Shown: positions 8,180 through 56,044 of the stretch, piece by piece
Layout of the letters: each line of letters begins with the position of its first letter
How positions within the stretch are numbered: position 1 is the stretch's first letter
DNA from: Trueperaceae bacterium
GTDB lineage: Bacteria > Deinococcota > Deinococci > Deinococcales > Trueperaceae
Direction of reading: 5' to 3'
NCBI GenBank assembly: GCA_020431825.1
Contig: JAGQHN010000017.1
Location: 1-59,857 of the forward strand
DNA: 59,857 nt
Notes under the pieces: model-generated
Seen by the model: the letters and a program-made list of their open reading frames with translations, nothing else
Told to the model about the DNA's origin: nothing
The model's database searches: none
Translations under genes and position numbers: made by a program

Positions 8180-8398
8180 GTCCTATAGAGGGTTTTATTT
8201 CCATAAGTGACATGCGTTTAAGGCGGTGCGCTTTCATGGTTTTGTAAAAAAAAGGAAGCTGTGCAGCTTAAACGGTTGACGTTACACCAGGACTAAGGTT
8301 CAAAAGTTAAAAACCTCACATCAAATAGGGTATTCTAGCGCAGAGACATTCTGAGAAGATGTCTATCTATAGATTTGGGAAGGTGGTGCATAGTGCCA

Positions 8399-9466
8399 AT
8401 GCGCAAGATTCTAATTGCTCTTGCATCATTAGTGTTGTTGGGTTTTGCTATTCTGCAGACGGGAACCGATGGCTGGAAGGGCGAGGCGCTACAGCAACTA
8501 AGCAATCAAGGAATAAGTATATCTTTTCCAGATGGATCATTTTTAGGAGAAGATACCTTAACCGGTTATCAGGCAGCTTTACTTCTGGGTGAAGCGCTCC
8601 GATCCATCGAGTCGAGCAGTGGATGTCAAACCCCTAGCACTGCTGCGAGTTCTTTTCGTTTTACAGATGTGCCGGATGGTCACTGGGCAAGTAGCTATGT
8701 ACATCAGCTCGAGGCTCTTGGGGTGAGTGAAGCGTTTCCCAGTGGACAGTTTCAGGGTGAAAACTTCCTGACAGGCTACCAAACTGCATTTTTGGTTAGC
8801 AAAGTTGTTGAGCAGTTAAATCAGAGTGTTCAGTGTGGACTCGAGAATTCAAGAGGAACTCTGACGCAGCTCAATAATGATATGACGCAGCTCAAGGCTG
8901 AACTTGCTTCCGGAGGATTACAAGGACCCGCCGGACCCGCCGGACCCGCAGGTCCTCCAGGACCCGCCGGACCCGCAGGTCCTCCAGGACCCGCCGGAGC
9001 TGATGGTCTAGCCGGCCCAATTGGTCCAGTCGGCCCTCAGGGCTTAGCAGGAACAGCCGGGCCTAGAGGTCCAGCTGGCCCCGTTGGCCCAACTGGCTCC
9101 GTAGGCCCTGCCGGCCCAGCTGGCCCGGCTGGTATTGCTGGACCTGCCGGAGAAGCTGGCATCTCCTGCTGGGATAGTGATGGTGACGGCAGACAAGATC
9201 TTTCTGAAGACATCAACCTTGACGGTACATTTGATGCCGCAGATTGCGTCGGACCTGCCGGTCCAGAAGGACCCCAAGGACCCCCTGGCGCTGCTGGGCC
9301 AAGAGGTCCCACCGGGCCAGCCGGCCCAGCTGGACCCCAAGGGGAAAGAGGTCCGACAGGACCAAAAGGGGATGACGGCGATAGAGGCCCAACTGGTCCC
9401 CAAGGCCCGCAGGGACCTCAGGGTCCCCAAGGTCCCCAGGGTCCTCCAGGACCTCCAGGGAGTTAA
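8399..9466 (+). CDS. SLH-domain surface protein with collagen-like stalk
   Basis: The protein starts with a signal-like hydrophobic stretch ([19 protein letters not shown]), then has two SLH-like units; the second is clear ([14 protein letters not shown] through LTGYQTAF). A short coiled-coil-like segment follows ([12 protein letters not shown]). The C-terminal half is a Gly-X-Y collagen-like tract rich in GPAGPAGP and GPQGPQGP. It is broken once by a Cys-flanked acidic insert ([12 protein letters not shown] to DAADC) that resembles calcium-binding DxDxDG loops. SLH domains bind secondary cell-wall polymers or peptidoglycan, so the collagen part probably projects from the envelope as a stalk. 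ATG 8399 is used; GTG 8393 is two codons earlier and better spaced from AAGGTGG. Collagen coding repeats run through nearly identical codons, which invites slippage. Confidence 0.85.
8930..9463 (+). repeat. Collagen-type Gly-X-Y coding repeat
   Basis: Nine-base units such as GGACCCGCC and GGTCCTCCA are repeated in tandem, encoding about 50 Gly-X-Y triplets in two blocks separated by the Cys/Asp insert at about 9160-9250. The long GP-rich open frames on the opposite strand are shadows of this repeat. Confidence 0.9.
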
Positions 9467-9470
9467 ACCA

Positions 9471-9500
9471 AAAGAGGCAGGTAAATCCTGCCTCTTTTTT
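9471..9500 (+). terminator. Strong terminator after the collagen-like gene
   Basis: AAAGAGGCAGG pairs with CCTGCCTCTTT across a 5-nt loop and runs into six T, 5 bp after the stop codon. Confidence 0.92.
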
Positions 9501-9888
9501 CGCTAAAAGTGTTTGCACTTCAAAAACAGCTTGTCCCGTTTGCTGAGTCTATTGGTTTTAACTCGCAAATTGGTTTAGGCTCACACTAGCATTTTCGATA
9601 GTTTCGGATTAGTTCGCAATAAGTATTGCTTGCTTCTAAACCAGAATGCATTCCTCTAGGCTTGCCACTACCAAGGGTGGCATCAAAGAAGATGAGCGTT
9701 TAGCGGTGTTTACGAGATTCGAATATATGCCTCGTCCGCTTTTGGCGAGGCATTTTTGTTTCCGAAATTAAAAGGTTTAAAGGTGTAAACTTCCTGGAAA
9801 GGCTATCTATAGAAAGTCTTTTAGAAATGAGACTACAGTAGCTTGTTTGTTGGTTGAGAGATTGGGTAGTTCCAGAGAAAGTTTACGT
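9501..9888. other. Gene-free stretch carrying repeat element copy A
   Basis: No coding frame was seen. The middle is occupied by copy A of the dispersed element (9627-9757). The rest is unremarkable AT-rich DNA. Confidence 0.6.
9627..9757 (+). ncRNA. Dispersed intergenic element, copy A (candidate small RNA)
   Basis: This stretch of about 130 bp is clearly related to 55682-55811 (plus) and to 47050-47193 (minus). Shared blocks include CTAAACC, TGCATTC, GTGGCATCAAA, GATGAGCG, CGAGATTC and CGTCCGCTT. Copy A ends in a perfect terminator hairpin (ATGCCTCG with CGAGGCAT, then TTTTT at 9727-9757) and contains an internal hairpin (TGCCAC with GTGGCA). It could be an independently terminated small RNA or a miniature mobile repeat; no promoter was identified. 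Confidence 0.55.
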
Positions 9889-46995: not shown

Positions 46996-47039
46996 GAAAG
47001 AAGCATCAGGTACCAATGCCTGATGCTTCTTTCATTTTT
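46996..47039 (+). terminator. Strong terminator ending the sulfatase operon
   Basis: A perfect 15-bp stem (arms 46996-47010 and 47019-47033, GAAAGAAGCATCAGG) with an 8-nt loop is followed by ATTTTTA. Confidence 0.92.
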
Positions 47040-47049
47040 AGATGTTATA

Positions 47050-47193
47050 AAAAATTCCCATCTCAAGCGGACGGAGTATTTACACGAATCTCGAAAACAT
47101 CATTCAAAGCTTGTCTGTTTTTTTGTCGTCTTTGTTTGACGCCACCCTTAGTAGTCGCAAGCCAAGAGGAATGCGTTATGGTTTAGATTCAAA
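47050..47193 (-). ncRNA. Dispersed intergenic element, copy C (candidate small RNA)
   Basis: On the minus strand this matches copies A (9.6 kb) and B (55.7 kb) at both ends: CTAAACC, GCATTCCTCTTGGCTTGC, AAGGGTGGC at the 5' side and CGAGATTC, CCGTCCGCTTGAGATGGGAA, TTTTTT at the 3' side. The middle differs and is slightly longer. It begins 8 bp past the phoU stop on the same strand. Confidence 0.5.
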
Positions 47194-52546: not shown

Positions 52547-55339
52547 ATGCCTTTTGAGGTACAGCTTTTGGGTGTGCCAGCCTATGTCCAAAATCAGCAA
52601 AAGATAGATATTCCGGCGAGTAATACGCTCTTACTGGTTGCTTACCTAGTCTATGCAGAGCGCTGGATTAGCCGTCAGGAGTTGGCAGGATTATTCTGGC
52701 CTGAAAAATCAGAACGTACCGCCCGTCATAACCTAAGCCAATTGCTTTATGTTTCAAAAGAGCAAGTCTGGACAGAAGGGCTCGAGTTAGAGCGAAGTCG
52801 TATTCGTTTTGCTGCGCCGAGTGATCTGAGTCTTTTTCGGCTGAATCTGTCAAAGGGAAAATGGGCTGAGGCTTTAAGGTACTATCATGGGGACTTTCTT
52901 GCCAGCATTGACCTAAAGGTTTCTTCTGAGTTTGATGCCTGGCTGAGTGATACGCGTCTGGAACTTTATACAAGCTGGCGAGAAGCAGCTTTAGCTCAGA
53001 GCGAGGTTTTAAGGGGCAAGGATGATTTTGCAGGTGCAGCCGGTTTGCTAGAGCAAGTACTACAGACCGATATCTTAGCTGAAGATATTTTGCAGAGCTA
53101 TTTGTCCTGTCATCTCGCACTCGAGGAAAGTCAGCGCCAGCAGGCAATCCTGATTTATGAGCGCTTTGAAAAAACGCTACAAGCGGAACTGGCTATGGAA
53201 CCTCTGGCTGAAACCCGGACACTGGTCAAAGCCTTAAGGGAGAAGACGAAGACTGTTTCTGCTGCAAAGCATGTGGCTGTGGCGTCGCGACAAGTTTACA
53301 ACTTCCCAGGTTACAGCAGCGGCTTCGTAGGGCGTGAGACAGAAATGCAAGAACTTGGCAACTTGCTGCAAAAGCCAGAAGTCAGACTTATAACCCTGCT
53401 GGGGCCTGGGGGAATCGGTAAAACGCGCCTTGTCAGTCACTTTGCTACAGAGCAAACCGGGTTTGCTGATGGGGTGGTTTTTGTTTCCCTTGCTGCACTT
53501 AATGATGCTGAGTTTGTCGCATCTGCTCTGGTCGCAGCCTTGAATTTAGCTGGTCAACCCGGTCTTTCAGCAAGAGATCAGATACTTGAGCATTTGCAGG
53601 ATAAGGCCATGCTTCTTGTCTTTGACAATTTTGAGTCGGTGATGGAGGCTGTAGAGTTTGTCCAGGATATTCTTGAGAAAACGCCTTGCCGCGTACTAGT
53701 GACCTCGAGGGAGGCACTCGAGCTTGCCGATGAATTTCTCTATGACCTTCCCGGATTAAGTTTCCCTGAGGAAAAAGGGGTTGCTACTGAGGCGTTTGAC
53801 TCAGTAAAGCTCTTTATTCGATGTGCGCAGCGTGTCGAGGCTGGCTATGCACTTAGTGAAACGAACAGTGCCGCTATAGGAGAACTGTGTAACTTACTTG
53901 AAGGCTCTGCGCTCGGGCTGGAGCTAGCGGCCTCGTGGCTACGTGTTTTTACAGTGGCAGATATGGTAAAGGAAGTGCGGCAGAACCTGGACTTTTTAGT
54001 GGCTGAGCATACTTTGGTGGCCGAGCATACTGAAGTGCCTTTAAGGCATCAGAGCCTGCGGGCGGTATTTAATTATTCCTGGAACCTGTTACTGGCAGAT
54101 GAACAGGATGCCTTGGCTCGCCTTTCGGTCTTTCGCGGCGGTTTTGATCGAGAAAGTGCTCAGGCTGTAACGAAGGTTTCGGTTAGAACCTTGCTAAGTC
54201 TGGTCAATAAATCTTTACTGCAACGTTCCCTGGAAGGACGATTTGAGGAACATGCCAGCCTGAGGCAATTTGGCGATGAGCGCCTTGCAGAACCAGACAA
54301 GTCAAGGTTTCAGCAAAGCCACGCCGAGCATATAGCGCATTTGGCTGCGCAGTTTCGACAATGCACCAATACCAAACAGGAAGAGGGCTGGCACAAGCGC
54401 CTTAAACCGGAGCTAGATAATATCCGGACTGCGGTGCGTTTTGCTAGGGACAGCGGTGCTACCAATCTTGGTCTACGTATTATGGTTGACCTGCGGCAGT
54501 ACTGGTACCGGGCTGGTCTTGTAACTGAAGCAAAAGATAGTCTTACGGGCTTATTAAGTCAGTCTACCAAAGACGTCGAGCCTAGTGTTTTGGCCTGGAG
54601 CTATGAGCTAAGTGCTGAACTCAGCCGTCTGTCGGGTCAGTTTAAGATTGCTCGGAAAAACTTTACTGAAAGCCTGCGCCTATTTAAAGAACTGAACGAT
54701 ATAAGAGCGTGCATTGCAGTTTACAACGGACTGGGGATAGCTGCCTATCTTGATGGCGACCAAAATGAAGCAAGACAGACCTGGGAGGAAGGCCTTGCCA
54801 ATGCTCGAGCCTTAAAAGATGAAAACGCCATTGCTAATTTGAGCATCAGTCTTGGCTTTTTAGCAAAAGATGATAATGATTATGGCCGCATGATGACCTT
54901 ATTCAGTCAGGCGCTAGAGCTTTACGAAGCGCGCGGTCATCAGTTTGGCATTTTATCAGCGAAGAGCAATCTGGGTTTTGCTACCTTACATCTCGAGGAC
55001 TATCGCAGCTCCTGGACCTATCAGCGGGAGGCACTAGAGTTGTCTCTCGAACTTGCCCATCAGGATTCGATTATTCGTTGCCTCGAGGACTTTGCTTCAC
55101 TCGCGGCAGCCTGCGGTGAGGCAGCGGTTGCCCTTCAACTGGCAGAGGCAACCTGTGTTCAGCGCAAAGCGCTAAACTTGCCTATTGAGCCACACGATCT
55201 GGCTTTTTTAGAGGCTTATCAAAAAAAGGCTCGAGCCAGTCTAGATAAAGATTCTATTGCAGTAGCCAGGGACATTGGCAGTGCCATGAGTTTGCAGGAA
55301 GCTGCCAGGGAAGCGCTGTCATTACAGCTAAAAATATAG
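52547..55339 (+). CDS. BTAD/NB-ARC/TPR transcriptional regulator (SARP/AfsR-like)
   Basis: This 930-aa regulator has an N-terminal DNA-binding winged-helix region (about 1-90; LAGLFWPEKSERTARHNLSQ), a bacterial transcriptional activation (BTAD) domain of TPR-like helices (about 95-235), an NB-ARC/STAND ATPase (P-loop LLGPGGIGKTRL at about 284-295, Walker B LLVFDNFE near 357, GSALGLELAASWL), then tetratricopeptide-type repeats (about 580-880). The layout is that of AfsR-type and STAND regulators, where ligand binding to the sensor opens an ATP-dependent switch. No obvious target operon is adjacent. Confidence 0.9.
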   Translation: MPFEVQLLGVPAYVQNQQKIDIPASNTLLLVAYLVYAERWISRQELAGLFWPEKSERTARHNLSQLLYVSKEQVWTEGLELERSRIRFAAPSDLSLFRLNLSKGKWAEALRYYHGDFLASIDLKVSSEFDAWLSDTRLELYTSWREAALAQSEVLRGKDDFAGAAGLLEQVLQTDILAEDILQSYLSCHLALEESQRQQAILIYERFEKTLQAELAMEPLAETRTLVKALREKTKTVSAAKHVAVASRQVYNFPGYSSGFVGRETEMQELGNLLQKPEVRLITLLGPGGIGKTRLVSHFATEQTGFADGVVFVSLAALNDAEFVASALVAALNLAGQPGLSARDQILEHLQDKAMLLVFDNFESVMEAVEFVQDILEKTPCRVLVTSREALELADEFLYDLPGLSFPEEKGVATEAFDSVKLFIRCAQRVEAGYALSETNSAAIGELCNLLEGSALGLELAASWLRVFTVADMVKEVRQNLDFLVAEHTLVAEHTEVPLRHQSLRAVFNYSWNLLLADEQDALARLSVFRGGFDRESAQAVTKVSVRTLLSLVNKSLLQRSLEGRFEEHASLRQFGDERLAEPDKSRFQQSHAEHIAHLAAQFRQCTNTKQEEGWHKRLKPELDNIRTAVRFARDSGATNLGLRIMVDLRQYWYRAGLVTEAKDSLTGLLSQSTKDVEPSVLAWSYELSAELSRLSGQFKIARKNFTESLRLFKELNDIRACIAVYNGLGIAAYLDGDQNEARQTWEEGLANARALKDENAIANLSISLGFLAKDDNDYGRMMTLFSQALELYEARGHQFGILSAKSNLGFATLHLEDYRSSWTYQREALELSLELAHQDSIIRCLEDFASLAAACGEAAVALQLAEATCVQRKALNLPIEPHDLAFLEAYQKKARASLDKDSIAVARDIGSAMSLQEAAREALSLQLKI

Positions 55340-55681: not shown

Positions 55682-55811
55682 TGCTTGAACCTAAACCAGG
55701 ATGCATTCTTCTTGGTTTGCAACGAACAAGATGGCATCAAAATTGATGAGCGCTTAGCTATGTTTTCGAGATTCAGATAAATGCCCCGTCCGCTTGAGGT
55801 GGGAATTTTTT
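55682..55811 (+). ncRNA. Dispersed intergenic element, copy B (candidate small RNA)
   Basis: It aligns to copy A over its full length with about one gap (TGCTTG, CTAAACCAGGATGCATTC, ATGGCATCAAA, TGATGAGCGCTTAGC, TTCGAGATTC, CCGTCCGCTT). It ends in an imperfect hairpin (AATGCCC/GGGAATT) with six T. It lies downstream of the BTAD regulator and converges on the next gene. Confidence 0.55.
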
Positions 55812-56044
55812 ATTGACGTCCTTTAAATTTTCCTAGTAGGACTTAGTGTAAACCGTATGACCTGCTCTGAAAGTTATTTTTACCAAGGTGCTGCAAATTG
55901 AACACTCAAAAAACTATAAAATCCCTTATAAGGTCAATTGCTGATTTTGATTTTAGGGAGCCTATACCAGCAGATAAGTATTTGTTGAAAACTCTAACTC
56001 CAGGTTACTCTTTCGGGTTAATTATAGGACATCAGGGTATAAAC

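What the first reader, a model, noticed from the sequence alone, without database searches (positions are those of the whole stretch)
9627..9757. Three-copy intergenic element ending in a terminator: new small RNA or miniature repeat
Copies at 9627-9757 (+), 55682-55811 (+) and 47050-47193 (-) share conserved blocks separated by variable ones, and end in a hairpin plus T-run. Copy A has a perfect hairpin and internal stem. Each lies downstream of a gene on the same strand and faces a convergent or opposite-strand feature. Three copies in 60 kb imply many per genome. It is not a riboswitch class, tRNA or 6S RNA that I can recognise. Small non-coding repeats of similar size are known in Deinococcus radiodurans, so a mobile origin is an alternative.
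Basis: partly seen in the sequence, partly recalled or inferred. Interest (0 to 1): 0.75.

Follow-up and report, generated by a model that had tools for sequence, protein, structure and literature searches.

The report
Decayed miniature IS200-type transposon repeats
The three repeats are old, transposase-less remnants of a very widespread kind of single-strand jumping DNA (IS200/IS605 family), not a new small RNA; their "terminator" hairpin is the right-hand end of the transposon.

Summary
The three copies are real, and the genome holds about 12 convincing ones; relatives in the same genus, family and order (Deinococcales) hold more. It is not a new RNA class. A scan of named genomes with the 3' hairpin found the same hairpin in at least 17 phylum-level groups. 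There it pairs with a left-end hairpin (TTnAAT|CTCTTTGGG...ATTCCCCG-hairpin), either in miniature units of about 95-195 nt or around a gene for an IS200/IS605-family transposase. A profile built only from units outside Deinococcota finds exactly the three reported copies in the window and nothing else, plus the relatives' copies. The sharp ends match those of the autonomous elements. A same-order genome carries the same left end directly before this transposase gene. Best reading: a non-autonomous IS200/IS605 derivative (MITE/PATE), once moved in trans by a Y1 transposase, now decayed; no matching transposase is in this assembly. A terminator role is incidental at most: 3 of 12 copies here lie between divergent genes, and the genes beside A and C have their own terminators. 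New member of a known kind; low interest.

The parts
9636..9761 (+). Copy A: non-autonomous IS200/IS605-type element (left end to right end)
   Evidence: ends set by the family boundary profile
9630..9635 (+). Copy A presumed target / left cleavage site, TTGCTT (family consensus TTGAAT)
   Evidence: boundary profile
9727..9753 (+). Copy A right-end hairpin followed by a T-run (terminator-like)
55691..55814 (+). Copy B: same element
55685..55690 (+). Copy B presumed target / left cleavage site, TTGAAC
55785..55803 (+). Copy B right-end hairpin, then T-run
47046..47186 (-). Copy C: same element, with an internal insertion of about 16 nt
47187..47192 (-). Copy C presumed target / left cleavage site, TTGAAT, about 10 nt after the phoU stop codon
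47057..47075 (-). Copy C right-end hairpin, then T-run
9470..9500 (+). Not part of the element: terminator-like hairpin (AAAAGAGGCAGG-TAAAT-CCTGCCTCTTTTTT) of the upstream collagen-like gene, lying before copy A
   Evidence: sequence read (not listed by the scan, whose rule wants five T beyond the stem)
46996..47033 (.). Not part of the element: 17-pair terminator-like palindrome between the convergent phoU and TIM-barrel genes, beside copy C

Best explanation
Each copy is a non-autonomous derivative (MITE/PATE) of an IS200-group element of the IS200/IS605 family. It consists of a left end (TTGAAT|CTAAACCAGGATGCATTCCTCTTGGCTTGCCA...), a short non-coding middle and a right end (ATACCCCGTCCGCTTGCGGCGGGGATTTTTTATT). 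In autonomous relatives the same two ends flank a gene of about 147 codons for a Y1 (HUH) transposase. The inferred mechanism: when the DNA is single-stranded, the two subterminal hairpins are bound by a TnpA made in trans, which cuts after TTnAAT at the left and after TTCATT/TTTATT at the right, releases a single-strand circle and inserts it 3' of another TTnAAT-like site without target duplication. The window copies are old: copies are about 74% alike on average, their left hairpins are eroded, and no matching transposase is left in the assembly. The T-run after the right-end hairpin makes it terminator-like by construction. Shown: shared ends, sharp boundaries, link of these ends to tnpA genes, multi-copy dispersal with unrelated flanks. 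Inferred: trans-mobilisation, the single-strand mechanism, present inactivity.
For: In L073, L122, L146, L159 and L170 it follows, within 0-25 nt, a transposase ORF that is itself preceded by the left-end hairpin; the protein is Y1_Tnp (2.4e-39) and NCBIfam transpos_IS200 (136.7 bits, cut-off 55). A profile from 25 units outside Deinococcota finds the three window copies (7.4e-5, 0.002, 0.0034; the only window hits, spanning left and right ends) and relatives' copies down to 8e-14; shuffled and reversed windows give nothing (best 2.1). In the same order, G048 carries TCAATCTCTTCGGGTCTGATTCCCCGAGGCTTGCCTCGATG directly before this tnpA (70% identical), and G052 has a decayed copy with both ends. 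Boundaries: flank positions carry almost no information until TTnAAT on the left and after TTCATT on the right, in this genus and across phyla alike. Right-hairpin covariation: 105 of 115 unconstrained inner positions complementary against 53 expected, outer pair 111 against 87. Dispersal: cores alike (mean 74%; 89% in G010) while flanks are at background, 43-46%.
Against: No autonomous partner with these ends was found in G000 or G001: G000 has one partial Y1 transposase at a contig edge with a different right end, G001 has none. No clean empty site was obtained: orthologous G001 regions lack the element, but intergenic sequence is too diverged and contigs break there. The similarity of the three window copies alone to the cross-phylum profile is modest (E 7e-5 to 3e-3); the link runs largely through the G001, G010 and G048 copies. 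Strand is mixed (+,+,-), so no lagging-strand bias is visible.
Confidence: 0.93

Rival explanations
1. The element arose as an IS200-type MITE, but this lineage has co-opted it as a 3' UTR terminator or RNA-stability element, so that selection keeps the hairpin plus T-run.
For: In this genus the right end reads ATTTTTTATT instead of the commoner TAGTTCATT, giving a good T-run; 9 of 12 copies in this genome lie downstream of a same-strand gene; all three window copies score as terminator-like.
Against: Three of 12 copies lie between divergent genes, and the G010 copies, which have no T-run, mostly do not follow same-strand genes. The collagen-like gene and the phoU/TIM-barrel pair already have terminator-like hairpins of their own next to copies A and C. 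ATTTTT after this hairpin also occurs in SAR324 and Gammaproteobacteria (L077, L123, L137), so it is a variant of the IS end. 9 of 12 is not significant. B and C have weakened stems.
Confidence: 0.06
2. A dedicated multi-copy small RNA or riboswitch-like RNA with its own terminator.
For: Conserved blocks, a possible long-range pairing of GAATCT with AGATTC, and a terminator-like 3' end.
Against: No Rfam match; single-copy folds no better than shuffles for B and C, weak for A; only 2 of 25 consensus pairs with two-sided changes; both conserved ends accounted for by IS ends; no fixed gene context; the G010 family lacks the T-run.
Confidence: 0.02
3. REP/REPIN sequences mobilised by a RAYT transposase.
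For: Same Y1 superfamily, palindromic, intergenic.
Against: No GTAG tag; the linked transposase scores 37.7 against a cut-off of 80 for the REP-associated model but 136.7 against 55 for IS200/IS605; the ends flank an IS200-group gene in a complete IS.
Confidence: 0.01

Closest known systems
IS200-group insertion sequences (IS200/IS605 family, Y1/HUH transposase TnpA), e.g. IS608 and ISDra2
   Same: Subterminal imperfect palindromes at both ends and insertion 3' of a short fixed sequence: ISDra2 inserts 3' of TTGAT (PMC2806898), IS608 3' of TTAC (PMC5934647).
   Different: The window elements carry no tnpA; the target TTnAAT is inferred from boundaries only.
PATEs (palindrome-associated transposable elements) of Haloquadratum
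   Same: Near-terminal palindromes related to IS605-type transposons, no target duplication, too short for a transposase (PMC3119063).
   Different: Different sequences, bacterial host (Deinococcales), about 130 nt.
REP/REPIN elements (GTAG and CGTC super-families)
   Same: Palindromic intergenic repeats; GTAG REPs are linked to related Y1 transposases (PMC3733652).
   Different: Here CGTC lies inside the stem rather than as an unpaired end tag, and the linked transposase is IS200-type, not RAYT.
SNRs (small noncoding repeats) of Deinococcus radiodurans
   Same: Short dispersed non-coding repeats in the same order (295 copies, at least 9 types; PMC1978522).
   Different: No sequence comparison was made here; they are reported absent from D. 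geothermalis. A lead only.

Membership tests
IS200/IS605-derived MITE/PATE | Too short to encode a transposase; non-coding | tested here: met
   Units of about 125-140 nt; copies differ by frame-breaking indels
IS200/IS605-derived MITE/PATE | Subterminal palindromes that match the ends of IS200/IS605 elements | tested here: met
   Left and right ends shared with elements carrying tnpA; cross-phylum profile finds the window copies
IS200/IS605-derived MITE/PATE | Insertion 3' of a fixed short sequence, with sharp ends | tested here: met
   TTnAAT at left, TTCATT/TTTATT at right, flanks uninformative
IS200/IS605-derived MITE/PATE | No target-site duplication | tested here: inconclusive
   Read by eye only: bases after the right end differ among copies (A TCCGAA, B GACGTC, C AACATC) and do not repeat the left hexamer
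IS200/IS605-derived MITE/PATE | Presence/absence polymorphism with a precise empty site | tested here: inconclusive
   Same-genus orthologous regions lack the element, but flanks are too diverged for a junction
IS200/IS605-derived MITE/PATE | Autonomous partner with the same ends in the same genome (usual, not strictly defining) | tested here: not met
   None in G000 or G001; present in other genera of the order. Not disqualifying: Haloquadratum PATEs are found although nearly all its IS200-type transposases are pseudogenes (PMC3119063), and this assembly is fragmented
IS200/IS605-derived MITE/PATE | Mobilisation by TnpA through single-stranded DNA | not testable with these tools
   Needs a biochemical or genetic assay
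Intact autonomous IS200/IS605 insertion sequence | Carries tnpA | tested here: not met
   No transposase-sized reading frame within the units
REP/REPIN with RAYT | GTAG tag and RAYT-type transposase | tested here: not met
   No GTAG end tag in the family consensus; transposase below the RAYT cut-off
Known structured RNA family (Rfam) | Covariance-model score at or above the gathering threshold | tested here: not met
   No match in the window
Intrinsic terminator | GC-rich hairpin followed by a T-run | tested here: met
   a sequence match only, termination activity not testable
D. radiodurans SNR | Sequence match to SNR consensus | not tested
   Consensus sequences not at hand

The most novel reading that the evidence does not exclude
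One lineage of IS200-type transposon ends, nearly unchanged in sequence, has spread with its miniature derivatives through at least 17 phylum-level groups, and in this Deinococcales genus its right end has become a portable transcription terminator that reshapes 3' ends of genes.
Probability: 0.07. Interest if true: 0.45.

Novelty: new member of a known kind. Interest (0 to 1): 0.2.

Why it matters
It removes a candidate new RNA class and shows where such candidates can come from: eroded ends of single-strand transposons look like small RNAs ending in terminators. The end consensus given here lets such repeats be recognised in any genome, including many uncultured phyla where they are probably unannotated.

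Tried and rejected
Small protein: the consensus has an open frame (MHSSWLATNKDGIKVDERLAMFTRFG*), but copy B has a 1-nt deletion, C an insertion and L023 and L029 indels, so no frame is kept. Conserved RNA fold: RNAalifold gives only 2 pairs with two-sided changes and -8.4 kcal/mol. Rfam: nothing. Gene-context role: orientations mixed. Resident transposase as mobiliser: the G000 and G010 Y1 transposases have other right ends. Empty sites in G001 for copies A and C, and in G000 for L037 and L040: orthologous flanks found for some, but contigs end or intergenic sequence has diverged. CGTC-REP: name resemblance only.

Full report
Observation. The three copies exist as described. A search of the window's own genome (5.63 Mb, 338 contigs) with a sequence-only model finds 16 matches, 12 of them at E 4e-11 or better and 15 at 0.0012 or better; a same-genus genome (G001) has about 10, a same-family genome (G010) 9, a same-order genome (G048) 2, and the other relatives searched none. 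G048's contig of 27,368 bases is the record titled "Deinococcales bacterium" (L134), so the window is from Deinococcales.

What it is. The most conserved part is the 3' hairpin. Titles cover at least 17 phylum-level groups: Bacteroidota, Cyanobacteria, Desulfobacterota, Gammaproteobacteria, Nitrospinota, Nitrospirota, Chloroflexota, Bacillota, Acidobacteriota, Planctomycetota, Verrucomicrobiota, Deinococcota, Omnitrophota, Patescibacteria, SAR324, Poribacteria, WOR-1 and others. Most are metagenome bins, so single cases may be misbinned. Two forms appear. The first is a miniature unit, TTTAATCTCTTTGGGTTTAATTCCCCGCCGCTTGCGGCG - short middle - ATACCCCGTCCGCTTGCGGCGGGGTAGTTCATT, often in near-identical copies at different places of one genome (for example L059, L096, L103; L083, L101, L145, L157, L169). 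The second has the same two ends around a gene of about 147 codons; the proteins are Y1_Tnp and NCBIfam IS200/IS605 family transposases, and 11 of the 15 plasmid records that match by protein are annotated so.

Linking the window to it. A profile built only from 25 such units, none from Deinococcota, finds most G001, G010 and G048 copies at 1e-6 to 8e-14 and, in the window, only the three reported copies (7.4e-5, 0.002, 0.0034), spanning left end to right end; shuffled and reversed controls are clean. In G048 the left end stands directly before a tnpA of this type that is cut by the contig end, and G052 holds a decayed element with left end, broken tnpA and right end. Boundaries agree: information rises abruptly at TTnAAT on the left and falls to background after TTCATT or TTTATT on the right, in both sets. 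Palindrome pairing is under constraint: 105 of 115 unconstrained inner positions are complementary against 53 expected, though related copies inflate this. The stem base that has no partner (CCCCG-T-CCGC-TT-GCGG-CGGGG) resembles the imperfect palindromes of this family (PMC5934647); that is a resemblance, not a test.

How it most likely works. From what is established for IS608 and ISDra2 (PMC5934647, PMC2806898), TnpA binds the subterminal hairpins on one strand, cuts at both ends, forms a single-strand circle and inserts it 3' of a short target. A unit with both ends but no gene can be moved in trans. Flank-independent dispersal fits this (core mean 74% alike, flanks 43-46%), as do the G010 copies, which reach 98% identity at unrelated places. 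The window copies look dead: eroded left hairpins, one small internal insertion, and no matching transposase in the assembly.

Against a terminator or RNA role. Copies A and C sit beside terminator-like hairpins of the neighbouring genes (sequence at 9470-9500; 46996-47033). Three of 12 copies here lie between divergent genes, and the G010 copies lack a T-run. Folding and Rfam give no support. Co-option of some copies as terminators is not excluded.

Comparison. The precise known category is the PATE, the transposase-free, palindrome-ended derivative of IS605-type elements described in Haloquadratum (PMC3119063), or in wider usage an IS200/IS605 MITE. The sequence-level features tested are met, except that a clean empty site and absence of target duplication could not be settled and no autonomous partner is seen in the same genome, which PATEs need not retain. 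It is a new member of a known kind.

Noticed in passing
L057-L170: One pair of IS200-type ends, almost unchanged in sequence, occurs in at least 17 phylum-level groups including candidate phyla; many copies are miniature and probably unannotated.
   Followed up: partly
L094, L113, L136 (Gammaproteobacteria bacterium BWSM_42): Between the two IS200-type ends lies an inverted pair of GTAGGAGCGGGCTTGCCCGCGA-like repeats that looks like a REP/REPIN of Pseudomonas type nested in the miniature element.
   Followed up: no
L171 (G000:C337:2-187): The only Y1 transposase seen in the window's genome is a partial IS200/IS605 TnpA at a contig edge with a different right end (AAGCCACCACCTTTGGTGGTGGTT).
   Followed up: partly
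window 8375-9466 (+): Protein with an S-layer homology domain and long collagen-like Gly-X-Y repeats, followed by its own terminator-like hairpin.
   Followed up: no
window 52547-55339 (+): Large BTAD/NB-ARC/TPR regulator-like protein upstream of copy B; copy B's flanks have no match in the same-genus genome G001.
   Followed up: no
L040/L051 (G001:C463:1251-1452): A full copy followed directly by a second, partial right end, so two units lie in tandem.
   Followed up: no
G013:C1 (L199, L207 and five more places): Seven identical-scoring copies of another Y1 transposase in a single-contig genome of the same family, apparently a recently active IS200/IS605 element.
   Followed up: no
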